From Amphiura filiformis (taxonomy: Eukaryota > Echinodermata > Ophiuroidea > Amphilepidida > Amphiuridae), in the NCBI RefSeq assembly GCF_039555335.1, contig NC_092628.1, positions 34,804,965 to 34,868,964 on the forward strand: DNA of 64,000 nt, written 5' to 3'. Under the pieces are notes generated by a model, which worked only from the letters and a program-made list of their open reading frames with translations, did no database searches and was not told where the DNA came from. The translations under genes were made by a program, and so were the position numbers. Positions 35,827 to 54,160 of the stretch are shown here, piece after piece. The first letter of the stretch is position 1. Each line of letters begins with the position of its first letter.

Positions 35827-37965
35827 CTAACTGTGATGCTTCTGAAAATGATGAGCTAAACTATTACGGAGTGAGAATGTTCTTTCACACACATGACATG
35901 CATATAATGCCTGACTGGGTGTAATCTGTTCCTTCACTTGACCACCTGAAGAAGTGGACGGATTGGACTTTGCTTTGTCCATTGAGTGAGTACTCGATTT
36001 GTGACCCTCTATATGTCCGACTTCTGATACCGATGAAGTCTTAATGTGTAGCTTCTTTGGTTTGGACACCTTTAAATTGATTGGAGAATGCCGATTTCCA
36101 GATACGATCTTCATATTTTGGCTACTAAGCTGATGCTGACTTGATGTTGGCTTCAGCTGGTCTTCTTCTGAATCATGGTCTTTTCTTTTCTGAGCATCTG
36201 GGGTCTTTTCACTAGGTTTTTGGAGGCCTTTGTTTGTCATTTTCTGCTTCATTGATCTGGAATTCCCTGAATGAATCCTGACTTGGTGTTCCTTGAGATG
36301 AGATGCTTTATAGTATCTCTTGTCACACATATCACAGGCATGGTTCTTCTCCCTCACTGGGGTTTCAGGTTTGGGTGTTCCAATCTCGCCTGATTGACTT
36401 TCCTTCCCTTCATGTACTTTTGAATAGTGTTCTTCCAAACGCTCTTCAGTTTTAAAGCGCATATTGCATTCCTCGCATGAAAACAACCTTTCCTGCTGTT
36501 CCCGTCTCTCAATCGGTTCTGACTTTTGTTCTTTTGGTGCGTGTTGTCGTTTCATATGTCTGTCCAGATTTCCTTTTAGGGTAAAGTTATAACCACAAAT
36601 CTTACAAGGAAATGTCTGCTTTTTATCTGGCACAGAGTGACTCGTTTTCTCACTGCTTCCACCATCTTTACTGGCCGGTGGGACATTATGTATAGCAGCA
36701 TAATGATCTTTCAGATGAATTTCTGAATAATAGCTCCTGCCACATATATTACATGAGAACAAAGTATACTCAGATTCAGTGCTGCTTTGTTCCGTCTCGG
36801 GTTTCACTTCTTTTCTCTTTCTGTGTGTTCTTTCGATATGGATTTTCAAGAGTGATTTTTTGTAAAATCTCTTGTCACATTTTCCACAAGCAAAGCGCTC
36901 CTTGTTTACATTTGTTTCACCTGGTGTCTTAGTGGTGAGCGAGGATTCTGTTTTGGGTGGGCTCATTTGCTCTCCTTTTGCTGGACTTGACTTCATTGTC
37001 TTTAAGTGTATCCTTTCGAAATGCTCTCTCAAGTGAGAGTATGTGTAATATCGCTTGTCACATTCACTACATGCATGACTTTTCTCTCTCGCAACTTTTA
37101 CTTCACCGGTGATATTTGACTTAGTTTCAACAGGCAGCTTCCTAGATTTTGACTTCAATCCAACATGCAAACTCTTAGTTTTATGCTTAAGGGTTAAATG
37201 TTTATTGAGGCTTGAACTGGAATGAAATGCTCTGGTGCACAGTTTGCAATGATACATTTTGTCACCAGGTGTTCCTTGCTCTTTTAGGTGAACCTCGTCA
37301 GATGTCTTCACAACTTGACTCTCATTGTTGCGGCCGGAGGTTGGTGGAGTTTCATGCTTAAGTGTATGTTTATAGAGACCTGAATTGGAATGAAATGCCC
37401 TGGTGCACAGTTTGCAATGATACATTTTGTCACCAGGTCTTCTTTGCTCTTTTAGGTGAACCTCGTCAGATGTCTTCACAACTTGACTCTCCTTCTTGCG
37501 GCCAGATGTTGGTGGAGTTTTATGCTTAAGTGTTAAATGTTTATTCAGGCTTGAATTGGAGAGAAATGCTCTGGTGCACAGTTTGCAATGGAACATATTT
37601 TCACTTGGCGATTCTTGCTCATTTGGCTTTTCCTTAGCAGACCTGACGACTTGACTTTCCTTGCTACCTGATGCTGAGGAAGACTTTGAAGAGTGCATTC
37701 TCATCCTGTGTTGAGTTAAGTGTGATCTGTCATGGTAACTTTTAGGACAATCATCACATGAGTATGGCTTCTCTCCTGGATGTGTTCGTTCATGACGTTT
37801 AAGATCCTGTAGTGTGACAAATTGGAAACTACAATACCTGCACTCATGTAGACTGCCAACTCTAGGTGATGCAGCGGACATTTCTCTAGGTGATGAGGCT
37901 GGTGGGGACATGTCACTGGATGATCGCGACACTGTACGTGAACGACGCTCATCGCTCATCTTCAT
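35827..37965 (-). CDS. C2H2 zinc-finger protein, 3'-most coding exon (12 fingers)
   Basis: An open frame of 712 codons ending in TGA. It encodes 12 C2H2 fingers spaced along the whole length, the first at about residue 42 (CRYC...HERTH) with a classical HPGEKPY linker to the second. Fingers 3-5 are near-identical HCKLCTRAF modules joined by repeated ESQVVKTSDEVHLKEQ linkers, which shows recent internal duplication. Finger 11 (CDMCDKRYYK...) and its flanks are nearly the same as a finger in the neighbouring frame at 37962-43663. The N-terminal 40 residues are Ser/Arg-rich. The likely role is nuclear nucleic-acid binding. The ATG at 37965 overlaps the stop of the upstream frame by 4 nt (ATGA). 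It could be the start of a separate protein, or the exon may be spliced in frame from the upstream one, for example donor at about 38035 and acceptor at about 37932, phases compatible (weak sites). Its frame is closed by a stop 22 codons upstream of the ATG. Confidence 0.85.
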   Translation of the reverse strand: MKMSDERRSRTVSRSSSDMSPPASSPREMSAASPRVGSLHECRYCSFQFVTLQDLKRHERTHPGEKPYSCDDCPKSYHDRSHLTQHRMRMHSSKSSSASGSKESQVVRSAKEKPNEQESPSENMFHCKLCTRAFLSNSSLNKHLTLKHKTPPTSGRKKESQVVKTSDEVHLKEQRRPGDKMYHCKLCTRAFHSNSGLYKHTLKHETPPTSGRNNESQVVKTSDEVHLKEQGTPGDKMYHCKLCTRAFHSSSSLNKHLTLKHKTKSLHVGLKSKSRKLPVETKSNITGEVKVAREKSHACSECDKRYYTYSHLREHFERIHLKTMKSSPAKGEQMSPPKTESSLTTKTPGETNVNKERFACGKCDKRFYKKSLLKIHIERTHRKRKEVKPETEQSSTESEYTLFSCNICGRSYYSEIHLKDHYAAIHNVPPASKDGGSSEKTSHSVPDKKQTFPCKICGYNFTLKGNLDRHMKRQHAPKEQKSEPIERREQQERLFSCEECNMRFKTEERLEEHYSKVHEGKESQSGEIGTPKPETPVREKNHACDMCDKRYYKASHLKEHQVRIHSGNSRSMKQKMTNKGLQKPSEKTPDAQKRKDHDSEEDQLKPTSSQHQLSSQNMKIVSGNRHSPINLKVSKPKKLHIKTSSVSEVGHIEGHKSSTHSMDKAKSNPSTSSGGQVKEQITPSQALYACHVCERTFSLRNSLAHHFQKHHS

Positions 37966-40900
37966 CTTCTTTCGGGTGGTGTGACAGGTGTCTCTGATGA
38001 AGATGATGCTGCTTTGTTCCTGGGGATTTGATCACCTTTTCGTAGATGTATCAATTCATGCCTTCTCACATATTTCTTTTGCGCAAATGCTTTGCTGCAG
38101 AACTTACACCTGAATATTTCCTGCTGTCCCATAGTGACTGTGGCACCAGGATGTGCCTTGTCCATGTGGTTTGTAAGATTTATGAATGATGAATACCGTG
38201 ATGTGCAATAGTCACATCCATATGCTTTTGAGGGACCATCTCCACCATGGGCCTTTTTCACATGATCCCATAACTCATTTTTAGTAGCAAATCTTTCATC
38301 ACATTCTTGGCATTTACGAGGTCTATCCTTGGCATGTATAGTTTCAATATGTCTTTTCAAGCTGTTAGAATGCACAGCTTTATTACAGTAATTACATGTC
38401 ACGCTCTTGGATCCACTAGGGGACTTCTCTGGTGAAGATGTACTGCTACTACTAGACACTTTCTCTTTTTTGACAGAAGGTACTTTGAGGATTTTTCCAG
38501 GTTTCACTTGCACAGATGATGTTGATGCTTTCTGCGTCTGCTTGAATCCAAATCCAGTACTTCGCTTATGAAAACTAAACGGCTTTGCTTTGCTCCTAGC
38601 ATGTGATTTCATGTGGGAGACCAAGCCTGCTTTTGTTTGTAATTCAATCCCACAGAGCTGACACTTGAATTCACCTGCACCATCTTGAGTACTTGAATGC
38701 AAGCTTCTTAGATGCAACTTCAGGTGTTTCTTCAACACATGATGTAACTGGAACTCCTTTCCACAATACTGGCACTTTCTGGAGTGTTCCTTTGAATGGG
38801 ATCTCACATGCTTCTTCAGGTCCTCAGGCGAAGGAAAACTCTTTTTGCAAACGTTGCATGAATATGGATTCACGATAGCATCAACCTCTTGCTCTTTGTT
38901 AACCTCTTGCTCTTTGGTAACCTCTTCCTCGGACTCTGATGACACATCTTCATTTTGTTGAGGATATGATGAAGTTGCCTTTGTTGACGACTGCAATGTC
39001 TGAGGAAGTGATTCTAACCTCACAACAGGCTGCATGGTTGTTTTCTTTGAATGGGGGAGTGGTGAACTGCTTGTTTGTTCAGTGGTTGCTTTTGAATGTT
39101 TACTGTTTATGTGGCTAGCTAGACCTTTACGAGCTATAAACTTAAGCCCACAGAATTGGCAAGGATATCCATTTACCTTATGTGAGGCTTCGTGTTTCAC
39201 AAGTTGATCCTTGTCACGGAAAAGTGCTTGACAGCTGCTACACTGAAATAACATGGGTTGAAAGTGCTCCTTTTCATGGGCCTGTAATGTTGCACTTGTT
39301 GGAAATGTTAGATCACAGTGAGGGCACATGTAAGACTCACGCCCTGACTGCGTTTGAATATGGTCAATCAGCGCCGACTTGAGCGTAAACATCTCATGAC
39401 AAAATAGGCAACCAAAGCTGCTAAGTGGTGCATCTGATGGTGCGGTGTGCGTCTTTTCATGTTTCTGAAGCTCAACCTCATTTGGAAACATCTTGAGGCA
39501 AAATTTACACTTGATTGATGCTTGCTGCTCTACATGAGTTTGCTGATGGTTAAGAAGAAGTGCTTGACTGGAGAAACCTTGATTACACTGATGGCACTTG
39601 AAAGCAGTACTCAACTCCTCTGCAAACTTTTCTTTTGGACCAGGCTTAATATGCTTCTTCTTGTGACCTTCTTCATGACGTTTCAGCTCATATGGATACC
39701 AGTATGCAACATCACAAGAACTGCATGTGTGAGGGCCTTTAGCTTGGTGAATTTTAATTTCATGATTCATGAGAGTTTTCCTAAAGGGAAACGATTTCGG
39801 GCAAAATCTGCATTTGTACAGCGTATCTGTTTCTTGTTTGACAACTGCTTCTTTGGATGGCTCGTCATCACTCTCTACTTCTGGTGCGTCAAAATTAACA
39901 TCATCAGCAGCATCGTCAACATCTGAGGACTCCTGATCAGCCACCATCTGTAATCGAGCCCTTTTAGCTGCATTTCGTTCTCCAACATATGGGGATGCAA
40001 CAGAAGTCATTTTCTGCTTCATTGATCTGGAATTCCCAGAGTGAACCCTGTCTTGGTGTTCCTTGAGATGAGATATTTTATAGTATCTCTTGTCACACAT
40101 ATCACAGGCATGGTTCTTCTCCCTCACTGGGGTTTCAGGGTTGGGTGTTCCAATCTCGTTGGCAGACCCAACTTTGTTTTCCACATCAGCACACTTCTCT
40201 TGATGTTTAATGAGACCTGATCGTTGATAGAAACCTTTCCCACAAGAGCCACAATTGTGAGGATATGGATTTATTGCTGGCGAAGAGGCACTACGTTTCT
40301 CATGCCTACTTTGATCTTTTGGTTTATTAGCATGATCCTGTTCTTTGTGATACTTCAAATGAGCATCCATTGCAAATTGCTTCCCACATTGCAAACACCT
40401 GTAAGGCTTACTACCTTTGTGGCTCCTCTCGTGCTGAACGAGGTTTGAGCGTCTCGAGAATAACCTGTAGCAGAACTGACAACGGAACGGTTCATTTTGA
40501 GCATGTTGATATTCGTGGAAAGACCAGTCATCTATTAGCATGAAACCAATTCCACAATAACTGCACTTGTATGGTTCATTTTCAGTCTTGTCACCTCCAT
40601 CATGACCACTTTGTTCCTTGTTATCATCTACCAAATTCAGTTCTAGGTCTTGTTCATCAGTTGGTTCTGCGTACAATGGCCTGCTTCTTGTTCTCTTTGG
40701 ATACCGATTGTCATCTTCATGTACATCCTCATCATCATCACTACTGATATACCTCTTCCTCTTCACAGATCTTCTTCTTGGATACCGATTTCTTCCAACA
40801 TCCTCCTCCTCTTCCTCCTCAGGGGAATCAGAATCCGCCTGTCCACCAAAATCACTGAAGTTATCATTGTCATCATCATCATCATCTGATACAGTCAAGT

Positions 40901-43663
40901 CATGACTGATTCTAGTGTCATCTTTCTTGTTCTTTCCTTTCATGTTTGATTTACCGTCATCAACAGACCTTACAGTATAATGTATACTCTTTAAATGTGC
41001 AAGTAGCATCTCATTGTCATCAAATACTTTCCCACAGAATGTACATGTAAATTGTGTCCTATGCACTTCTTCGTGCTGTGCTAAATGAGTGTTATTTGTA
41101 CACACATAGCCACAAAAACTGCATTTGTGATCAACATTTGTAGGGCTTGTCTGTGTTTCAGGAATTGAAGTTGCCTGTGCTGTGATCGCTGAACTTTGTC
41201 CAGATGTGCCTGCTTGAGGTATGGAGTGTTGTCGCAAGTCCCCTCGGCTATGGTTTCGCTTGTGCACTATCAGATCCCAGCTTTGATGAAAGACTGCATC
41301 ACAAACGTGACACACAAACTTGCTTTCACTAGAGTGTATTTTCTTATGCTCAGCCATCTTATTGGCATTAGGGAATTCTTCAAAGCACACTTGACACACA
41401 AATGTTTGGTCCTTTTCCACATGAACCTTGGACCCTGGCGCTATCACCTTATGGCCTGGATGGCGTGACCTGTTGTGCCTCAACAGCAGTAGGTACTTCT
41501 CAAAGCTTTTGGGACACAGCTCACATTTGTACTTCTTTTCAGTATGGGTTTTCTTGTGCACTGTCAAGCATACAGGACGATTGAATGTTCGATCACATTG
41601 ATCACACTTGTAGCTGTTCTGTTCAACATCACCTGCTTCATCATCTGATAATTTCTCCAACTCATGAACTCTGACATGCTGTATAAGACTCACTTTCCTC
41701 CTGAAAGAACGTCCACATGTTTTACACTTAAAATCACTGACTTTCTCATCCTCCTCATCTGTGTCACCATCCAATTCATCTTTCTTCTCACTTTTAATCT
41801 TCTGTTGGATGCTCTTCCTTCTTTCAGTTTGGCTGCCATCACTGCTGCTGTCCTCGTCACCAGACTCCCCTTCCCATGAACAACCTGATGAAGCTCCAGA
41901 GTCATCAGAAGATACAGGTTCCTTCTTCAACCTCACCTTCTGTATTTTATCAGAAGGGTTTGAAGGGCTTGTCGTATTTTCAACTCCACCACTTTGCTCT
42001 TGATGCTTTCCTTCAGATGGTTGTGAATCTTTTTGTCCTTCCGATTGAGCCACAGATGCCCTGTCCTCAGTATCCTTCTTTTCAACATCTTTTGGACCTG
42101 TTCCCACATCTGGTTGTCGTTTGATGACATCACCTTGTGCCTTGTGTTTCTTTTCATGTTTCATCAATATCTGATATACCAAGAATGTCTTTTGGCAATA
42201 CTGGCAGGTGAAATTCTTATGCACTCTCCGAATGTGCTCCTCGCGAAGCCTCCACAAAGTAAATGTTTGGCTGCAGTCAGAACATTGGTAAGGTGCTCCA
42301 CTTTGCTCTTTTACATTGTTTGGTGATTGACTAGATTTGGTGGTTTTACTGGCACTTGGTTGTGGTTGACTAGATTGGGTGGTTTTACTGATATTCGGTT
42401 GTGGTTGACTAGATTGGGTGGTTTTACTGGCATCTTTTTGTGATTGGGTGGTTTGTGCTTGATGAGATTGGGTGGTCTTACTGGCACCTGTTTGTGGTTG
42501 ACTAGATTTGGTGATTTTACTGGCACCCATTTGAGGCTGACTAGATTGGATGGTTTTATTGACATCCTTTTGTGCTTGGCTAGATTTGATGATTTTACTG
42601 GCACCTGTTTGTGCTCGACTAGATTGGGTAGTTGTTCTGGTATCATTTTGTCCTACTTCACTTGATTTCACTACCACATTCCCATGCCTTTCCTTTTTCA
42701 GATGAGCCACAAGACTTTTTTTCCAGGCATATTTCCTTCCACACGTGTCACAAGCAAACTGTGGTTCTTTTGGTTCACTACCTGCACATACAGTTATATC
42801 ACCTTCAAGTTCTTTGTTCTCTTCATCTCCATCAATTGTATCAGCTTGTTCTTTACCTTCACTAGACGACATCTTCACTGTTTGCATCAAGAAATCTCCA
42901 ATTGCATTTCCCTTCATAGTAACTTTCAACCTCTTTCGCCAGAATAATTTGTATTGCATTTTATGATTTCTCATGTGGGATCGCACACGCATCGCCTCAC
43001 GACAGAACCTCCTGTTACAGTAAATGCATCGATGACCTTTGTTAGTTGACGGCTGATGTGATGAACCAGAAGCTGTTAAACTTTCTCTTAATACCCCATG
43101 GGAAGAAACAGTATGGTTAACAAGCCCCATGTAGGTTACCCAGGATTCTCCACAAGCATTGCAGGCATATGGCAGATGAGCTTTCTTATGCTTCTTGCAC
43201 ACACTGTGATTGGCAAACCTGTTGTTGCAATGTTCACATTTGTATGGTCTGTAGGTGGTGTGCAATTTCAGGTGTGAATTCAGCTTGGCTTTGGAAAGAA
43301 ACAACCTGTTACACTCTTTGCATTTGCAGATCTTCCGTGATCGCCTGGATTTATCTTCACTTGCACTTTCATCTTGGCTAGCACTTGTGTCCTGCATTGC
43401 TTTTAGTGCTGAGTGTGCATTGGCTTTACCTGTCAAATTTGCATTTTGTCTTTCTATTATTTTATGTGCATTTTGCCTTTCATTGCATACATTATGCATA
43501 GCTGTATCCGGATTTGCTTTGCCTGTTAAATCTGCATTTTGTCTTTCTTTACTTGGCATTTGTTGAGTATTTTGGTTTTCTTTAGTTCTGATTTGCTCAG
43601 GCTTGTCCTCCTGGTTGGCAATCACATTCTTGTTGGGATCATAAGCGCTACCTTTTCCTGTAG
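37962..43663 (-). CDS. Giant C2H2 zinc-finger exon (about 34 fingers)
   Basis: An open frame of about 1,900 codons carrying about 34 C2H2-like fingers (one C2HC, one incomplete). Other segments are a Ser/Gln/Thr-rich tandem repeat at about residues 328-440, an acidic then basic stretch at about 910-980 (EEEEEE followed by RYPRRRSVKRKRY, a likely nuclear signal), and a Ser-rich segment before fingers 31-34. Many fingers lack TGEKP linkers, so they are not one continuous DNA-reading array; RNA or protein binding is possible. The first in-frame start-like codon is GTG at 43625, not ATG. The frame is open upstream to a stop at about 43681 and includes a good acceptor (ttaccattgcag) at 43664, so this is most likely an internal exon beginning about 43663 or 43657. 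The C-terminus after the last finger (Ser-rich, ending PPERR) looks like a natural end, so the stop at 37962 may be real. Confidence 0.85.
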
Positions 43664-45761
43664 CTGCAATGGTAATAGGTCAGACAAATGCTCTGTTAAA
43701 TCTGCATTTTGTCTTTCTTTAGTTTTGACTGGAGAATTTTGGCTTTCATTAGTTTTTATTTGTTTAGATCTTTCTTTCTGGTTAACAATCACATTCTTGT
43801 TGGGGTCATAAACATTACTTTCTCCTGCTGTTGAAACGGTTACAGACAAACCCTCAGAGTGAGGATCATCCGAAATTGCAGAAATGTTGTTGCTGCCGAG
43901 TATTCGCTTCAAGATGCCACTTCTTGAAAACAATTCATTTGTCGCTGCTGGTGAGGACGTTGCAATTGATGCAGCTGATTTGGTAGATGAGAGTGCTTTC
44001 TTGCTCACTGATGACTTCTTGGAAGCTTGCAGATGAACTTTATTATGGGAGCTAAGAGCTTGCCTTGTTTTAAACATTTTGCTGCAAGTGGGACACTTAA
44101 TGGTGGGTGGAGATATAGCCTTTGCAGATTTGTTGTGGTAGGCTTGTCCTGATACCTTTGACCTTGATAGGTTTGACCTCCCAGTTTTGGATTGCCTGTG
44201 TGATTCCATGTGGCCTTTCAAACTTAAAATATTGCGAAACTCTTTGCCACATTTTAGACAAATATGACAAGGTTTTGCCGCTGCAAGTACTTTATTTACA
44301 ACCACAGGTTCTTCCTCTCCTGTCAAGTTTGGATTATGGATCTTCTGATGAATGTTGAGATTATTCTTATCTTTGAACGTCTCTGTGCAGTATGAGCAAG
44401 CAAAGGACCCTACTGTTTCATCTTCAGTTGATGAAGATTCCTGTGGAGTTCTATGCAGCATCTGCATATGTTTATCAAGTTCTGCATTATCCAAAAAGCA
44501 AGCACTACATTCCTTACATATGCATGGCTTCACATCTGGATGTTGTTGACGCATGTGAGTTTTGAGATCCTCTGCACTAGCAAACCTGGAGTTGCAATGA
44601 TTGCAAGGATGAGGTGTCTCTAGATCATGGAGATGTTGGTGAGTGGCTAAGAGTTCAGCACGTGCAAACTGTGCACCACATACCTTGCACTTGAGCGAAT
44701 AGAGAGCGGATCTGGTGTGGACCAATTCATGTTTTGCAAGTTGTGTTTTTGTCTCAAATTCTTCTCTGCAGGTCTTGCAGCGTGGTCTTATGTTGTTCCT
44801 CTCCTGTTGCCTTTTAGACGCTTCTAAATACTTACAAACACCACAGAACAATCCCTCCTTTAGTGCTATCATACCTTTTGCAGTCTCAATAGGGCTTGCA
44901 CACCTACCACATTTCACTATCATAGGAATGTTTTGAAACTTGCCATGGTTTTGCCCTGAAGCTGATGCAGCTGAGGTACTCGGTGAACTCTTTTGATAAT
45001 TCTGCCATGAAGTCCACATAGACCTTGAATTGTTGCAAGATTGTGTCACCAAGTCAAATTTTGTGTGAAGATCTTTGTACATCTTGGTTTCTAAATGTCT
45101 TAGTACCCCAGAGGTCTTTATGTCAACATCGCAAATCTTGCAATGAGCAATCCCATTTCCTTTCGCTATAAATGGTTGCAATGTTTTTTTCGATAATGTT
45201 TTTTTCGATACAGAGGATCTATATGGTCTACCCTTTGGATAAGACTGCCACAAAGTCCACGCAGAGCTTGAATCCTTGCTAGATTGTGCCATCTTCTCAA
45301 ACAGTTGTCGAAGATATATGTGCCTCACGCCTTTTACATGTTTTGATACCCTAGTCGTCCACTTCAGATCAACATCACAAATCTTGCAATGGCCAAAGGA
45401 TTGCCCACTTCCTTTCAAGTGTTCATTCTCATGAACGATTAAAAGATCAGCACTGGTGAAAGATTTGGGGCAAAACTTACATACAAGATTAAGTTTACAC
45501 TTTCCAGTCTTTTTTCTTTGCCTGTGAGATCCTGGCGTGTACAGCAACAAAAATGGACGTCTACCAATCTGTGGTCTGTTCTTGCTCTCGGTATCGTCAT
45601 CATCATTATCCTTCACATACCAGTAAGGGCAATACTTCTGTCGATGCATCCAAAGGTGGTTGCGAAAATATCGCACATCCCCACAGAAATGTTTGCGGCA
45701 ATAGCGACACTTTTGGATTGGTTTGCGGTTTAGTCGGCAAACAGGCTTTGTTGGATAACTT
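43622..45761 (-). CDS. C2H2 zinc-finger exon following the A20 exon (about 11 fingers)
   Basis: An open frame of 716 codons. It starts without ATG; the DNA reads ttttgtcttgcag followed by AAGTTATCC, a strong 3' splice site, so the exon begins at 45761 in phase 2. The preceding exon (ending 48249) also breaks in phase 2, and the join makes an Arg codon. Content: a CRYC...H finger, then two tandem copies of an unusual module (HCKICDVD finger followed by a W-x2-WQ-x-Y motif), a Cys4-like cluster (CGRC...CGVC), then seven classical fingers and a Lys/Ser-rich tail. The last 60 residues are duplicated just beyond in the next frame (shared YDPNKNVI and KERQNADLT). The stop TGA at 43622 overlaps the next frame by 4 nt. 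A donor at 43818 (AAA|GTAATG, phase 1) and acceptor at 43664 or 43658 would join the two frames through an intron of 155 or 161 nt; otherwise a 5-nt difference between the duplicated ends has shifted the frame. Confidence 0.85.
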
Positions 45762-46376
45762 CTGCAAGACAAAAATGTTTGTTGGATGAGGTTAATACAA
45801 AATAATGCTGCAATTTAAAGTGATGTTGTTTTAATATACTATTGGATTATTGTGAAATAAATTATATCAACTATATTTTTACAAAAAACCTGAAGCTACA
45901 TGTAGTATCACACCGTATATTGTTATCAACATCATTTATATAGCATGTTATGGAAAGCGATGAATGTTTATTTTTCATGTAGGCATTAGCTTATATTACA
46001 ACTTCTATGAGACCACTAGCGATTGTCGAGACATGATGTATACCTCATGGAAGTGAGTGACAATGAGGGAGCAATGAAATGAGACAATCAGGGCATAATC
46101 ATGGAATATTTGAAAATACATTTTAAAGATTTTGTACATGTTGGACTTTGATGCAAAGTGTGTGAATGCGTATATATACGCTGTTTGTGTGTTAAAAACC
46201 CTGTACACACGGACAGACAGAAAAGTGATTACTAAATCCCATTCTGTACATAGTTCAGACGATACAAAAAGGGTCTTGGGGCGAAAATACCCAAGGCATT
46301 TGAGATGGAAAAAAGAACATCAAGAAAATGTGGTGTCTTTGGGGAAAATGGGTCACTGGGGGCCAACAAGAACTAG

Positions 46377-47131
46377 AATTTCGCGGTTCTCGACGCAAAG
46401 CGTCAGCCGCAATGCCTCCACCTTGACGCCCATCATTTTAACCGGTGCAATTTCACTTGACCCCAAAATGACCTTCACATTATTTGCCTCACTAAGGTGG
46501 CCGTTCCCACCAAATTTCATAAACCTGCAGAAATCTATGGCGATTTGACCCAAGATGACCCCCGAAATTACCTTGATATTTTTGCCTTGTTTCAGTGGTC
46601 GTCCCCACAAAATTTCATGAACCTGCAACAATAATATGGCGATTTGACCTCGGATGACCCCAAAATAACCTTGACATTTTTTTCTTCCTACAGTAGTCGA
46701 TCCCATCAAATTTCATGAACCTGCAACAATATATTTGCAATTTGACCCCGGATGACCCCAAATGACCTCACAATGACCTTCCGATTACGCAAATTTTGCG
46801 CTGAAAAGTAAATCAGGTCAAGAACCTCTGGCTGTGCTACTCTCTGCCAAGTTTCATCACTGTAACTTGTACAGATATCCAGATAATCTGTGCACAAGGT
46901 TATTTTGCTTGATATGCATAAATTATGCAAATTAGGTACTTAATTACCATATTTTGCGCCGAAAACCTGCTAAAATTTGGAGACCACCAATTGCCATCCC
47001 TCCACCAAATTGCATCACTATACGCCTTACCAGTTACGAGAAATTGCACTCGCAAGCTAGGATGGACGGACAGATGGACACCCAGACGGACGGATAGACA
47101 ACCAGGAAACATAATACCTCCGGTGGTGGCA
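46377..47131. repeat. Dispersed repeat with about 100-bp internal periodicity
   Basis: About 100-bp sub-repeats share GATTTGACC..GGATGACCCC, TTCATGAACCTGCAACAAT and GTGGTCGTCCC words. The left margin has gaatttcgcggttctcgac. The right margin ends in a GGACGGACAGATGGAC-type tail. A second copy of the family occupies 61295-61810 and 62406-62540. It is probably an old non-autonomous retroelement or satellite-derived unit; minus-strand frames through it merely mirror the repeat. Confidence 0.7.
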
Positions 47132-47416
47132 TAAAAATATGGGGTCTTTGAGAGGCAACAGGATAAAACAGGATCTTTAGGGCTGCGCATAATGTACAAT
47201 CTTAGTATTGAGGGGCCCCTAAATGAAATACATAAACCCTTTATAATAATGAATATTTTTGAATGACTGTTTAGAATGTGAAAATGATTTCCAGAACCAA
47301 GTCGTCTTGTAATTTCTGTTGGGCTCATATAATTTCTGTTGGGCTTGTATATTTCTGCCGGGCTTGTAAATTTTTTACAGTTACACGCCTGACTGGCTAG
47401 TGCCACAAAATGTTAA

Positions 47417-48232
47417 GGTCCCCTTACTATAAATGAAGGCCTTCAATTAGCTGTTTGAAAGCCTTCACTGAACAGGTAATTTAGCCTTCAAATAGTAGGT
47501 GTTATTTAGCATGTACTAAGCCTTCAAAATGATGAATTATGTAAATTAGGCACAGCTAGTGACAGCCTTCACTAGCTGTTCAATAATAGCCTTCACTAGC
47601 TGTTCAATAATAGCCTTCACTAGCTGTTCGATGATTATAGCCTCCACTTGGCATGTACTAAGCCTGCAAAATGACGAATTATGTAAATAAGGTACAGCTA
47701 GTACAAGCCTTCACTAGCTGTTACATAACAGCTAGTGATATTTAAGCTTGACTATACTTACATTATCCATGATGCGGCATATATTATTGCACACAAAGAT
47801 AACTACATGCATTACATATGATATTGTCCACATAACATGCATCCCAAATGTAAAAAGTGAAAAACAAGGCCTATAAATAAAGCTGGAAACATCCAAAGGA
47901 TTAAGATTCCATCTGCATTCATCCACACCAGTTCAAAATGGTAGTTAAAATATATTCCCATCATGCACCTATTTGACCCTTGGGTCAACCACTGAGGAAG
48001 TGAAGGTTAGTGAAGGCTATAACTGGCTAACAGCTATAAGCCAAGTTCAAAAATCGAACAGCTATAGCTAAACTAGCTGTTCAATAATGTGAAGGCTAAA
48101 TTATAGCCGTTCAAAAATGTGAAGGCTAAATTATAGCTGTTCCAAGCATGTAGCAGCTAAGCTACCGGCTGTTCAAACTGCTGAGAAACAGCCTAGTGAA
48201 GGCTTAATTAGCTGTTCACTTTGGTAAGGGTC
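47417..48232. mobile_element. Inverted-repeat element next to a splice donor
   Basis: The left end is GGTCCCCTTACTATAAATGA and the complement of the right end is GGACCCTTACCAAAGTGAA; both are followed by (C)AATTAGCTGTT / CAGCTAATTAAGCC. The interior is made of many AGCCTTCACTAGCTGTTCA copies in both orientations, three in a row at about 47565-47640. No coding capacity. It ends only about 15 bp from the exon-intron boundary at 48248. Confidence 0.65.
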
Positions 48233-48248
48233 CAGTCCTGCTACTCAC

Positions 48249-50815
48249 CTTTTTTGAATTGCTGCTGCTGGCTTCTGAACTCCACCCGTTGCACACTGAC
48301 TTGTGGGCGCACTTCCACTGATGGACCTGGAGATTGTTTGCTGTTTGGATCTAGTCACATCAGTCTGTCTAACTCCTAATGACTGGTCATGGAAATGCTG
48401 TAATAGAGCTGAAAATGGGGTATTGCTTTTCTTAACCGTTGGTGCATTGGATTTAGGTGCTGTTGCTGAATGTGCCGTCATGATTTCTAGAAGTCGTGTT
48501 GGTTGAGGTGGTTTTGGAATGGCAGTTACGGGTCTTTGTAGAGGTGGTATACTTTTACTAAGAACTGCCTGATAGTTGCTCTGCTGCTGCATTGATGAAA
48601 CAGGAGATGAAGATCGTGATGGTGGCTTATCCCCAACTATTCGTTTCCTCCAATCTGCCCATAAAGGGCTGCTACTACTTGCTGTGCTTGTGGTATTGCT
48701 TGTGGAAGTTAGAATACTAACACAGGAAACAACTTGTATGCTTGATCCAGACTTCGGCATCAATGTTCTATTAGCCATGACAGTTTTGGCGTTGTCTATG
48801 CCAGCTATTGAGGTGCTACTACCTGTTGTGCCTGTGGTATTGCTTGTGGAAGTTGGACTACTTTGAGTTCCGGAAACAACTTGTATGCTTGATCCAGACT
48901 TCGGCATCGATGTTCTATTAGCCATGACAGTTTTGGTGTTGTCTATGCCAGCTATTGAGGTGCTACTACCTGTTGTGCCTGTGGTATTGCTTGTGCAAGT
49001 TGGACTACTTTGAGTTCCGGAAACAACTTGCATGCTTGATCCAGGCTTTGGCATTGATGTTCTATAGGCCATGACAGTTTTATTATTGGCTATGGCAGCT
49101 ACTGCAGAGGCTACAGTCATCTGTGTGCTACTACTACCTGTTGTGCTTGTGGTATTGCTTGTGGAAGTTAGAATACTTTGGGTCCTAGAAACAACCTGTA
49201 TACTTGATCCAGACTTCGGCATTGATGTTCTGTAGGCCATGACGGTTTTATTATTGGTTATGCCAGTTATTGAGGATGCTACAGTCACCTTTGGTGATGA
49301 CACTGGATGGGTTTCAAGACGAACATGTGATCCCTGTGATGCTTGCGATGTTACCTGAACAGGTGATTTGGACAAGATGATTGGGCATGATTTGGATGTA
49401 GAAGACGGAGCAGGTTGTCCGGTGGTCTGGACTTGGTAGAAGACTGGTTGATTGCTTGTTTTTGTGGTGGTGGGTTTGGTGTTCTGAGCACTTGTTTGAA
49501 GTTGGTAAATCATTGGCTGTAGAGTTGACTGTTGGATCACAGTATTTGGTTGTAGATTTGTTGGAGTCATCCCCTTAGGAATGGTTTGATTTTGGATAAT
49601 GTAGTACTTTTTTGTTTGGGTTCTTGGGGGTGATACCATTCTTACATTAGGCAGCTGTTGGGTGGTAACGGTTGATGACCGTGGGGAGGACTTTGTTGCA
49701 AGTTGAGATACCCCACTCAAAGCATGTTGAAGTGTTTGCACTGCTTTCACTGCTTCCATGGCTGAATTCAGAGAAGCAGCAGAAGGCATCCTGACTGGAC
49801 TAACATTTCCCTGTGAAGAAGTTGGCAGTGACAGTGCGAATCTAGGCTGTGATGACATGGACGGATACCTTACAGCTTGGATATTGGACGGATATCGCAC
49901 AGCTTGCAAATTGGATGGATACCGTACAGCCGAGATATTGGATTGAACCTGTGGGGATATTGGTAGTAACTGTACACGATCCTGTGGTCTTATAGATGGC
50001 AAATTTACCCCTTGCAGTGACAACTTATTTACTGGCTTTGGTTTTGGTTCCAACACTTCTGGAGGAATTACTTCATCCATATCTTCGATGGTTATCAATT
50101 CTGGTTCTGGCCTTTTGACATCCAACACTTCCAACTCTGGAGAAGGACTTCGTTCTCTTATTCGTGCTCCTAGTCTTAGGGAAGATTGGGGAGCTACAGC
50201 TGGTGATTTTGTTTGCATGTTTCTTCCAATGTTACTAGAGTCTTGGGAGACATCATCGGTGCATTCATCTCCACCATCTACATCCCAAAAGGTAAGTGGT
50301 TTTTCATCAACGCCACTCAAACTCAGCATATTCTCAATAGATGATGGTAAAATCTGACACTCATTTTTACCCTTTGGCTGTGACTGCTTGTGAGTAGTCG
50401 GTGTTATTGGACCTTTGGTGGTACCAGAAGAACCCCTTCGCATAGTATTTACCACCACTTTATCAATCACATTTCCTAAGTGAATTGATGTTGTACTGTT
50501 GCCTTTTCCTTTACCAAGTTCTGATGGTTTTCTTCGAGCAGTTTGACTTGCATCAACACAGGCATCTTTTGGTTTGGCATTCTGGCCATCATTTGCTGTG
50601 GTATTGAGGACATCTGATCCAGATGGAGATGGTTTGGGCAATGGTGTCATGGCAGATAGGTTTGGTTCGGTGGGTTCATCACCACTATCGGATGATGAAG
50701 GTAGACATTTATCTGCCCAACACTTGGGGCAATAGCCTTGCAGGGTTGGCCTGGCCATGAAACCACAGCCATTCTTGCAGAGTAGATCTTGGAATTGTTT
50801 GATGCTCAAATTCAT
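48249..50815 (-). CDS. First coding exon: A20 zinc finger plus Ser/Thr-rich repeats
   Basis: The ATG at 50815 has A at -3 and is the first ATG after a clear acceptor (tgtttccacag, exon from 50829). Residues 13-32 form an A20-type zinc finger: C13-x3-C17-x11-C29-x2-C32 with GF after the second Cys and GYCPKCW at the end, closest in style to the A20 finger of Rabex-5, which binds ubiquitin. The remaining about 820 residues contain no C2H2 finger. They are rich in Ser, Thr, Pro and Gln, with an acidic patch (EPELITIEDMDEVIP), three AVRYPS repeats near residue 310, and four tandem copies of a 47-55-residue unit (NNKTVMAYRTSMPKSGSS core) at about 508-714. The exon ends at the donor GTGAGT; the TGA just inside the intron is not the real stop. 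It continues in phase into the exon at 45761. Ubiquitin binding and a nuclear scaffold role are inferences. Confidence 0.85.
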
Positions 50816-51413
50816 TGTGGATGTATACTCTGTGGAAACAAATAAAATACAAAATATTAATGCTATGAATTTAATATATTATCATATCAATTGCTTCCAC
50901 TGGGTTTATGATATTAGATAGAGATATTGGGCATGTCTCATTAAGTGCCGACTATAAAAACAGCATTGACCTCAAAATGATCAACCTTATCAAAATTTAC
51001 CATAAAATCTGCAGTGTCTGCACAGTATAAAATCTGATGTGCAAGCATAAAATTACAATGTACATCATATGGCAATGCAGTTTGGAACCCCAGAAGCTGA
51101 AGTTAAAATAAAAGATATGCCAGGGAGCTTACAGTAATGAGAAGTGAAACCTACCTTGAAATCTGCAAATTAAGTTGATTTTGGGTGATGATAGTACTAT
51201 CAGTATCACCAATTTCACTTAAATTGACAATTGATCAAATCCTGGATCAATATATCAGGGCCATCTCCCAATATTTGCCAGCCACAATGTACACATGTAG
51301 GCTGTTGATTGGTGGTTAGGCAATTACTATACATTAGACCTGTACGTACATGTAGCAATTACTCCAAAGATACTTGAAAAAACAAGAACATTGTTTTCAT
51401 CAAGCATACATAC

Positions 51414-51478
51414 CTTGATAAGATGAAATGGTAGTTCTAGTTTGCAAACCACAAGCAGCCTACATCTTGTTCTTGGAC
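51414..51478 (-). other. Probable 5' noncoding exon (65 nt)
   Basis: On the minus strand, an acceptor (tactgattacag at 51480-51479) and a donor (ATCAAG|GTATGT, GT at 51413-51412) bracket 65 nt. It lies 585 nt upstream of the A20 exon acceptor. Its only ATG is followed directly by TAG. The transcription start would lie further upstream; no TATA or initiator could be chosen from sequence alone. Confidence 0.5.
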
Positions 51479-51664: not shown

Positions 51665-52475
51665 ATCTTTAGTCCAAGGTTCGAGCTACTGCGGAATATG
51701 TTGTCCACTGCAGTCTGTAGGGTACTAGCAGAATCAGCCAGCAAGACAATAACCTCGGACTAAAGATTAACATTGGTAAAACCGAAGTACAAGTAATCAG
51801 CAGCCAAAAGGTCAACCTTAACATCAACATCAATGGCAATCTACTTAAGCAAGTGGATGAGTTTGTGTACCTGGGAGGCACCATATCTCAAAAGGGACAA
51901 GCAGAGAAGACATCAAGCACAGAATAGGAAAGCATTAGGAGCGGTCCAAAGACTTCACAGTATATGGAATGCCAAGGACATTCAACGGGCCACCAAGATC
52001 GAGCTATACAGGGTCCTAGTACTTTCCATCCCAATGTATGGAGCTGAGACCTGGACCATTAAGAAAGAAGACAAAAATCGCCTCCTAGTCTTTGAAATGA
52101 TGTGCTTGAGGAAGATTATGGGCGTATCACATCTGGACAAAATACGTAATACCATAATACGGGACACACTTGGGCTGAAGCACACCGTCACCGATAAAAT
52201 CACACAAAAAAGGATCCGATTCTTTGGCCACGAACAGCGAATGGGCAATGACAGATACCCCAAAATTTTGCTAGAGGGCAATGTACATGGAAAAAGACCA
52301 TGTGGAAGACCTCCCAAAAGATGGATGGACACTATTAAATCTGACTGCCTAGCTCGAAACATCACCTCCGTAGCAGCAGCAGGAAGGCTGGCCAAAGACC
52401 GAGTGACATGGCTTGGAATCACCATGGATCAGATGGCAAGGCAGTGTGCATCAGCATCCGTGCCGACGCCTTAGG
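51665..52475 (+). mobile_element. LINE fragment: C-terminal part of reverse transcriptase ORF
   Basis: The encoded sequence includes GLKINIGKTEVQ and VDEFVYLGGTIS (end of the reverse transcriptase core) in one frame. After a small frame break near 51,905 it continues with the typical LINE tail: YGAETWT, LRKIMGVSH, RIRFFGHEQRM, CGRPPKRWMD. The catalytic palm is missing, so it is dead. It ends near the TAG after VPTP. A truncated CR1/RTE-like non-LTR element is likely; the clade is uncertain. Confidence 0.85.
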
Positions 52476-53089: not shown

Positions 53090-54160
53090 GTGCAGATGTT
53101 CGCTGAACCTGTTCAACTTTGCAGATGGGTATGGGGAGGGAGCAAGAAGTTTAAGAGTACTCGACGACTGGTCTTACAAAGGTTGTGTATGAGCTTCCTT
53201 GATCTTGCGGCTACAGTGACTGTGGTTGCGGTTCAGAAAGGTCCGGGTGGAATTAGCCTTCCTGGTAATGGCATCAACATGAGCATTAAAGCCAGGTTGT
53301 GAGTCCAGGTGCACTCCCAAGGTATTTAGCTGAGTTCACATTCTCCCGGTTGTTGTCAAAGGCCTTCTCATAGTCCAATAAGATGACGTTGATTTGTGAT
53401 TTGGAATCTAATCCCTTGGCAAGATCTTGTAGGGCGACAATCGGCTGCGTATTGTAGGACCGGCACCTCCTAAATCCATGCTGGGCATCTGAAAGTGTCT
53501 TATGCTCAGAAAGGTGATGGATCACAGCACAATGGATGATATGCTCACAGAGTTTGCACAGAATGGCTGTCAAGGAGATGGGTGGTAGTTGGCAGCTTCT
53601 GATCTTGAAGATTGGTACTATGCATGCCTTCTTCCATTGTGATGGAACTCTACCCTGATTGATTGAGGCTTGGAAGAGTAGGGTTACTACTGGTGCAAGT
53701 TCTTCTGATGTTTCTTTGTAGAGCTTAGCCGGAATATCATCTGGTCCTGATGCAGTAAGTGCCTACAGATTTTTGAGCAGTTTGATGACTCCATTTTGGT
53801 CAACAGTGATGTTTCTCATGGGAGGATCCTGTCTGGGTCCCAAGTCTGGAAGTGCTGATGAGCAACAGAGAAACTGATGGGAACTGCCTGTTCAGAATGT
53901 TGGCTTTCACCTTTGGGTTAGCATGAAGATTGACACCATCCTTCAGAGGGGCTACTCCCATCTGGTCGACTCTCTTCGACTTCACTAAGGTGCCAAGTTT
54001 CCTGTTGTTACTGTCAGTTTTGCTGCATTCGATATCACATACTGGTTGTATGCCATTCGACAGGACTTTAATATTGGAGACTCTTTCTTAAAATGTCTGC
54101 AGTGCTTCCAGTCCTTGGTTCTGTCAGTCCTCCAAGCTTCCTTGAAGGCTCGAGCTTTCT
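53090..54160 (-). mobile_element. LINE reverse transcriptase fragment with internal deletion
   Basis: Minus-strand translation gives successive reverse transcriptase landmarks in broken frames: ASGPDDIPAKL, VPSQWKKACIVPIFK, the SLTAILCKLCEHII and QHGFRRCRS region, and ILLDYEKAFD (motif A). Directly after motif A the sequence jumps to SAKYLG, which normally lies beyond the palm, so the catalytic FxDD region has been deleted. Fossil element, Jockey/CR1-like. Confidence 0.75.

What the first reader, a model, noticed from the sequence alone, without database searches (positions are those of the whole stretch)
35827..50829. Very large protein combining an A20 ubiquitin-type finger with about 57 C2H2 fingers
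The first coding exon opens with a textbook A20 finger (C-x3-C-x11-C-x2-C). It continues, through phase-matched splice sites, into exons made almost entirely of C2H2 fingers. A20 fingers normally sit in trafficking or ubiquitin-editing proteins (Rabex-5, A20, ZFAND family); I know of no standard family that joins one to dozens of C2H2 fingers. If confirmed, the protein could couple ubiquitin recognition to chromatin or RNA binding. This is the best candidate here for an undescribed system.
Basis: partly seen in the sequence, partly recalled or inferred. Interest (0 to 1): 0.78.

Follow-up and report, generated by a model that had tools for sequence, protein, structure and literature searches.

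The report
Brittle-star ubiquitin-finger C2H2 giant protein
A brittle-star gene joins a finger of the kind that can grip ubiquitin to a protein carrying many C2H2 zinc fingers, a combination that my few literature searches did not turn up, although the reported 57 fingers depend on two unresolved breaks in the reading frame.

Summary
The A20 finger is real (25.1 bits, Pfam cut-off 21.6; closest solved relative Rabex-5). The splice from the A20 exon into the first C2H2 exon is strong and phase-matched. Exon 1 joined to the next open frame equals, residue for residue, an annotated 1568-residue protein of the brittle star Amphiura filiformis, with both A20 and C2H2 above Pfam cut-offs (10 fingers). 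Three relatives of unnamed origin share exon 1; one is a single predicted protein with an A20 end and two C2H2-type fingers.

The rest is unsettled. Another 45 fingers (33 + 12) lie behind two frame breaks. No splice pair at either break beats control breaks, and the annotated protein stops at the first. The published assembly is Nanopore-based (QV 31.6), so about seven base errors of all kinds are expected there. I favour one giant terminal exon with two small length discontinuities over extra introns.

Also found: the window and all three relatives carry an aligned SUMO-interacting-motif-like block, [LV]ITI[ED]D. My best reading is a nuclear ubiquitin/SUMO reader or ligase on a scattered C2H2 scaffold. 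A caution: Rabex-5's ubiquitin-contacting Tyr26 is Met here. Function is inferred, not shown.

The parts
51414..51478 (-). candidate 5' untranslated exon
   Evidence: acceptor at the 99.6th and donor (AAGGTATGT) at the 99.9th percentile of window sites; no transcript seen
48249..50829 (-). exon 1: start codon at 50815, A20 finger, long region without further Pfam match, conserved SIM-like block
   Evidence: acceptor at the 99.8th percentile; donor AAG|GTGAGT, top percentile; encodes residues 1-855 and part of 856 of P0019
50717..50785 (-). A20-type zinc finger (residues 11-33)
   Evidence: PF01754 25.1 bits, cut-off 21.6; Rabex-5 2c7m E 4.1e-8; coordinates
50072..50098 (-). SIM-like block LITIEDMDE (residues 240-248)
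   Evidence: pattern present and aligned in 4 of 4 exon-1 sequences; seen in 0.05-0.45% of shuffles of each; alignment; coordinates
43622..45761 (-). exon 2, open frame 2: 10 C2H2 fingers; annotated protein ends at its stop
   Evidence: acceptor TTTTTGTCTTGCAG before 45761, 92.9th percentile; exon 1 + this frame == P0019, 1568 aa
37962..43679 (-). open frame 3, 1905 codons, 33 C2H2 fingers; frame -1 relative to frame 2
   Evidence: finger repeat shared with frame 4
35827..38031 (-). open frame 4, 734 codons, 12 C2H2 fingers, stop at 35827; frame -1 relative to frame 3
43622..43679 (-). first frame break: overlap of frames 2 and 3, inside a tandem repeat
   Evidence: translations; no splice pair above controls; no slippery heptamer
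37962..38031 (-). second frame break: overlap of frames 3 and 4
   Evidence: no slippery heptamer

Best explanation
A real brittle-star (Amphiura filiformis) gene encodes an N-terminal A20 finger, a long stretch with a SUMO-interacting-motif-like block, and then scattered C2H2 fingers. SHOWN: the A20 match, a strong phase-matched first splice, identity with an annotated 1568-residue A20 + C2H2 protein, and relatives sharing exon 1. INFERRED (about 0.7): everything from 45761 to 35827 is one terminal exon, so the full product has about 55 fingers. The two frame breaks are assembly or allelic length discontinuities, and the annotated protein is a truncated model. INFERRED (about 0.4): it works as a nuclear scaffold whose C2H2 fingers, single or in twos and threes, hold DNA, RNA or protein, while the N-terminus reads ubiquitin (A20) and SUMO (SIM) on neighbours, or acts as a ligase there, as the A20 domain of Rabex-5 and the SIMs of ZNF451 do.
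For: Pfam zf-A20 above its cut-off in the exon and in the whole annotated protein, which also has zf-C2H2 at 67.7 bits. Best solved relative is Rabex-5, E 4.1e-8, with all four cysteines and the QG-[FY]-C-x-KCW core kept. P0019 equals my join exactly. P0001 and P0003 start inside the A20 finger and keep LQGYC[SP]KCW; P0001 and P0002 end in the same residues, KR, as the window's exon. P0003 is one predicted protein of 850 residues with both the A20 end and two C2H2-type fingers. The first splice beats all 60 controls. The SIM-like block is in 4 of 4 sequences; each shows the pattern in 0.05-0.45% of 2000 shuffles. Frames 3 and 4 share a 51-codon finger repeat with 3 synonymous differences in 28.7 sites and 5 non-synonymous in 124.3. 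Published assembly: Nanopore R9.4.1, QV 31.6, hence about 6.9 expected errors of all kinds in 9.9 kb. At the first break, homology to the neighbouring repeat copy runs in frame 2 before it and in frame 3 after it. Literature passages: the Rabex-5 A20 finger binds the ubiquitin Asp58 patch (PMC5135002, PMC1832185) and has E3 activity that F25A/Y26A removes in Drosophila (PMC11515992). ZNF451 combines SIMs, 12 C2H2 fingers and a UIM (PMC8998487).
Against: The annotated protein stops at the first frame break, after 10 fingers, and the Pfam list stored with it in the search database names only C2H2 families, not A20. No transcript was available. P0003 has no zf-A20 match at E <= 1, P0001 only 13.5 bits and P0002 none; the first two begin inside the finger and P0002 after it; P0003's fingers are below Pfam cut-off (18.7 against 25); its DNA was not seen. 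The Rabex-5 Tyr26 position is Met in the window and in P0001 and P0003, if their first residue is a true ATG and not a recoded GTG/TTG start. Y26A alone slightly reduced binding; Y26A/A58D abolished it (PMC5780041). Rabex-5's second ubiquitin-binding helix gave no Pfam match and was not sought otherwise. The SIM pattern was written after I had seen the block, and the four sequences are related, so the shuffle figures are not independent tests. No TGEKP linker occurs, and only 17 of 54 linkers are 8 residues or shorter, so a classic long DNA-reading array is unlikely. The QV counts all errors; how many are insertions or deletions is not known. The search for long relatives found only the species' own protein (1 hit among 39 candidates). 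The species of P0001-P0003 is unknown. Nuclear location was not tested.
Confidence: 0.6

Rival explanations
1. One reading: two short introns bridge frames 2/3 and 3/4, giving about 4058 residues in four exons.
For: Frame-compatible GT-AG pairs exist; one such model is open throughout and gives 55-56 fingers. At the second break the best pair scores 6.9, above the control median of 3.9.
Against: Hundreds of frame-compatible pairs exist by chance (366 and 572). The best scores, 2.3 and 6.9, fall within the 60 controls, 1.8-8.8. At the first break the candidate introns (43851-43664; 43818-43658 the best) would remove coding-like sequence that is a repeat copy of the exon after it.
Confidence: 0.15
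2. The annotated 1568-residue protein with 10 fingers is the true product; frames 3 and 4 belong to separate genes or a decaying tail.
For: P0019 ends exactly at the frame-2 stop.
Against: Frame 3 is open for 1905 codons with 33 fingers and frame 4 for 734 codons with 12. They overlap directly, leaving no room for ordinary gene ends. The two repeat pairs compared (51 codons between frames 3 and 4; 27 codons of repeats 1 and 3 within frame 4) show lower non-synonymous than synonymous change, pN/pS 0.38 and 0.19, on small counts. I could not search for frames 3 and 4 as annotated proteins (quota used).
Confidence: 0.2
3. The A20 finger is only a structural remnant taken from a Rabex-5-like gene and no longer binds ubiquitin.
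For: Tyr26 position is Met and the Gly-Asn after it is Ala-Arg; no VPS9 domain follows.
Against: All four cysteines and the KCW core are kept, and the two exon-1 relatives that cover it (P0001 36%, P0003 30% identical to the query over the aligned parts) keep LQGYC[SP]KCW.
Confidence: 0.35

Closest known systems
Rabex-5 / RABGEF1
   Same: Closest A20 finger among solved structures (E 4.1e-8); the A20 finger lies near the N-terminus.
   Different: Rabex-5 has a second ubiquitin-binding helix and a VPS9 exchange domain (recalled; MIU also); neither gave a Pfam match here. Tyr26 is Met. C2H2 fingers follow instead.
ZFAND family (A20 + AN1)
   Same: A20 finger at the N-terminus; ZFAND5 is the next solved relative (E 0.0023).
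   Different: No AN1 finger above cut-off (14.8 against 27.9 bits); the ZFAND5 chain is 213 residues.
ZNF451
   Same: SIM(s) at the N-terminus, many C2H2 fingers and a ubiquitin-binding element in one protein (PMC8998487 passages).
   Different: ZNF451 uses tandem SIMs and a C-terminal ubiquitin-interacting motif; here there is one SIM-like block (P0003 has a second) and an N-terminal A20 finger. The ZNF451 Pfam domain scores 18.9 against a cut-off of 30.
ZNF462
   Same: Several weak Pfam matches; scattered C2H2 fingers (the latter recalled for ZNF462).
   Different: All matches are below cut-off (14.1-15.5 against 27); no A20 finger is known to me there (recalled).

Membership tests
zf-A20 domain (PF01754) | profile match above the gathering score with four cysteines | tested here: met
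   25.1 bits in exon 1 and 23.2 in P0019, cut-off 21.6; C-x3-C-x11-C-x2-C
C2H2 zinc-finger proteins (PF00096) | multiple C2H2 matches above cut-off | tested here: met
   74.5, 233.1 and 115.3 bits in the three open frames; 67.7 in P0019
Rabex-5 / RABGEF1 | VPS9 exchange domain | tested here: not met
   no VPS9 match at E <= 0.1 in any of the four open frames
Rabex-5 / RABGEF1 | aromatic residue at position 26 of the A20 finger, needed with others for ubiquitin binding and E3 activity | tested here: not met
   Met at the aligned position; position 25 is Phe, as in Drosophila Rabex-5
ZFAND (A20/AN1) | AN1 finger | tested here: not met
   14.8 bits against cut-off 27.9
TNFAIP3/A20 and OTUD7 | OTU protease domain | tested here: not met
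   no OTU match at E <= 0.1 in any of the four open frames
ZNF451 | N-terminal SIM | tested here: inconclusive
   SIM-like pattern in 4 of 4 sequences; SUMO binding not measured
ZNF451 | Zf-C2H2_ZNF451_C domain | tested here: not met
   18.9 bits against cut-off 30
Ubiquitin receptor or ligase | measured ubiquitin binding or ligase activity | not testable with these tools
   needs binding and ligase assays

The most novel reading that the evidence does not exclude
An undescribed echinoderm family of giant nuclear proteins in which an A20 finger (ubiquitin) and a SIM (SUMO) sit together at the head of about 55 scattered C2H2 fingers, making a mixed SUMO-ubiquitin reader or ligase anchored on chromatin or RNA.
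Probability: 0.3. Interest if true: 0.7.

Novelty: new variant of a known kind. Interest (0 to 1): 0.5.

Why it matters
A20 fingers are known to me from trafficking and ubiquitin-editing proteins; joining one to C2H2 fingers would move this ubiquitin contact onto a nucleic-acid-binding scaffold. If the SIM-like block works, the protein would read two modifiers at once, as ZNF451 may and some repair proteins do by other parts (recalled). The prediction is directly testable with a 40-residue finger and a short peptide. It would also show a public gene model in a long-read genome cut to about two fifths of its real length (1568 of about 4058 residues) by frame breaks.

Tried and rejected
Exon 2 as a protein query returned 14 hits; the three that I aligned (P0016, P0007, P0004) matched only at generic C2H2 repeats. 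The other 11 were not aligned. I drew no relatives from this search. Viral-contig scan with P0019: five stretches matched a pattern, none encodes a relative. AlphaFold2 on residues 1-60 without an alignment: mean pLDDT 66.9, pTM 0.37, too weak to use, so no fold search was run. AN1, ZNF462 and ZNF451 profile matches are below cut-off and were rejected. Programmed -1 frameshifting was considered because both steps are -1; no X-XXY-YYZ heptamer stands in the upstream frame of either overlap (0 of 2). Splice scores use textbook base frequencies that I recalled, not an echinoderm-trained model. Rows dropped: P0018 is my own read-through query, not a relative.

Papers: passages only were seen of PMC5135002, PMC1832185, PMC11310086, PMC5415576, PMC1414109, PMC11515992, PMC5780041 and PMC8998487. 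The other papers were seen as search listings only. I used all 10 paper searches and all 3 protein searches.

Full report
WHAT IS THERE. On the minus strand a start codon at 50815 opens an exon that runs to 48249. Residues 11-33 match Pfam zf-A20 at 25.1 bits (cut-off 21.6) and nothing else in the exon matches at E <= 0.1. Among solved structures the best match is the A20 finger of Rabex-5 (2c7m, E 4.1e-8); ZFAND5 follows at E 0.0023. The exon's acceptor (first base 50829) and a candidate 5' untranslated exon (51478-51414) have splice sites above the 99th percentile of the window.

THE FIRST SPLICE. The donor is AAG|GTGAGT and the acceptor TTTTTGTCTTGCAG|A, phase 2 to phase 2. The summed score, 11.0, exceeds the best frame-compatible pair at each of 60 control breaks placed inside open frame 3 (1.8-8.8). 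Joining exon 1 to the following open frame gives a protein identical to P0019, an annotated, uncharacterized protein of the brittle star Amphiura filiformis, 1568 residues. The Pfam list stored with P0019 names three C2H2 families and not A20; my own scan of P0019 gives zf-A20 at 23.2 bits (cut-off 21.6) and zf-C2H2 at 67.7 bits. The window is therefore from that species or one with the identical sequence. Amphiura is an ophiuroid echinoderm. What evidence the annotators had for the splice is not shown in the record that I saw.

RELATIVES. A protein search with exon 1 gave 3 hits among 7991 candidates, the ones sharing most words. P0001 and P0002 are 77% identical to each other and 36% and 35% identical to the query over 57% and 42% of it. 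P0003 is more distant (30% over 11% of the query; 33% to P0001 over 252 columns). P0001 and P0003 begin inside the A20 finger, probably because a gene finder took an internal start; P0002 begins after it. Where covered (2 of 3), LQGYC[SP]KCW is kept. Cut in this way they do not pass the A20 cut-off: P0001 13.5 bits, P0003 and P0002 none at E <= 1. P0003 carries two C2H2-type fingers at residues 400 and 426 of the same predicted protein. Their profile scores are below Pfam's cut-off (18.7 against 25), so they are fingers by pattern, and I did not see P0003's DNA. A further search for longer relatives (1540-4900 residues by the tool's length rule) with residues 1-104 gave 1 hit among 39 candidates, P0019 itself. 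I therefore cannot say how widely the family is spread.

THE REST OF THE FINGERS. Three open frames hold 10, 33 and 12 fingers. Frames 2/3 and 3/4 overlap by 58 and 70 bases, and each step is a -1 change. Such pairs exist in hundreds (366 and 572), and the best (2.3 and 6.9) lie within the range of the control breaks (median 3.9, maximum 8.8). They are not evidence for introns, though the second does not exclude one. At the first break the sequence is a tandem repeat: homology to the neighbouring copy runs in frame 2 up to the break and in frame 3 after it. This fits a small length discontinuity inside one exon. The published A. filiformis genome was assembled from Nanopore R9.4.1 reads, with QV 31.6 reported for the polished flye assembly (PMC11310086 passages), which predicts about 6.9 errors of all kinds over 45761-35827. 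I infer, but cannot show, that the window is from that assembly; the 102.7-Mb contig length fits its chromosome-size scaffolds. The animal's heterozygosity is 3.22% in the same paper, so an allelic change is also possible.

HOW IT MAY WORK. Only 17 of 54 linkers between fingers are 8 residues or shorter, none is TGEKP, and clusters hold one to three fingers. This is a scattered arrangement, more like ZNF451 or ZNF462 (recalled) than like long KRAB-type arrays (recalled). The linker and finger numbers come from one spliced model; the short-intron choice affects only residues near the breaks. Exon 1 also holds a block, K[KR]PEPE[LV]ITI[ED]D, aligned in 4 of 4 sequences (the window reads KRPEPE), that fits the SIM form given in PMC8998487: two large aliphatics, any residue, another aliphatic, here followed by acidic residues. 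Each sequence, shuffled 2000 times, shows the pattern in 0.05-0.45% of shuffles; the pattern was chosen after seeing the block, and the sequences are related. P0003 has a second such site at residue 97. Rabex-5's A20 finger binds the polar Asp58 face of ubiquitin (PMC5135002, PMC1832185) and is called an E3 domain, inactivated by F25A/Y26A in Drosophila (PMC11515992). Here the two aligned residues are Phe and Met. In mouse RABGEF1, Y26A alone slightly reduced binding while Y26A/A58D lost it (PMC5780041). Ubiquitin binding is thus plausible but not assured.

KNOWN OR NEW. Four literature searches for A20 with C2H2 listed 0, 13, 2 and 4 papers, some of them in more than one list. Passages of two only list the two domain types separately; the other listings were not opened for this question. 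I found no description within this open-licence library. The domains are known; the combination and its pairing with a SIM-like block look new to me. I file it as a new variant of a known kind.

Noticed in passing
window 53286-53762 (-) and 51797-52474 (+): Remnants of a retroelement upstream of the gene: a weak reverse-transcriptase match (RVT_1 19.5 bits, cut-off 29.6) and an open frame resembling the tail of non-LTR reverse transcriptases (recalled; no Pfam match at E <= 0.01).
   Followed up: partly
window 48670-49287 (-): Exon 1 contains tandem repeats of 147- and 168-base units, multiples of three, encoding SGSSIQVVSGTQSSPT-type repeats; P0001 and P0002 show gaps there.
   Followed up: partly
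window 37177-37604 (-): A 168-base tandem repeat in open frame 4 (2.5 copies) repeats a C2H2 finger with its linker, a recent growth of the finger array.
   Followed up: partly
window 46461-48142: The first intron holds 24-base (47564-47629), 30-base (48074-48142) and 98-base (46461-46759) repeats.
   Followed up: no
window 44834-44911 (-): Open frame 2 has a CxxC-x18-CxxC element (CGRC...CGVC, residues 1140-1165 of P0019), a possible four-cysteine zinc site that is not a C2H2 finger.
   Followed up: no
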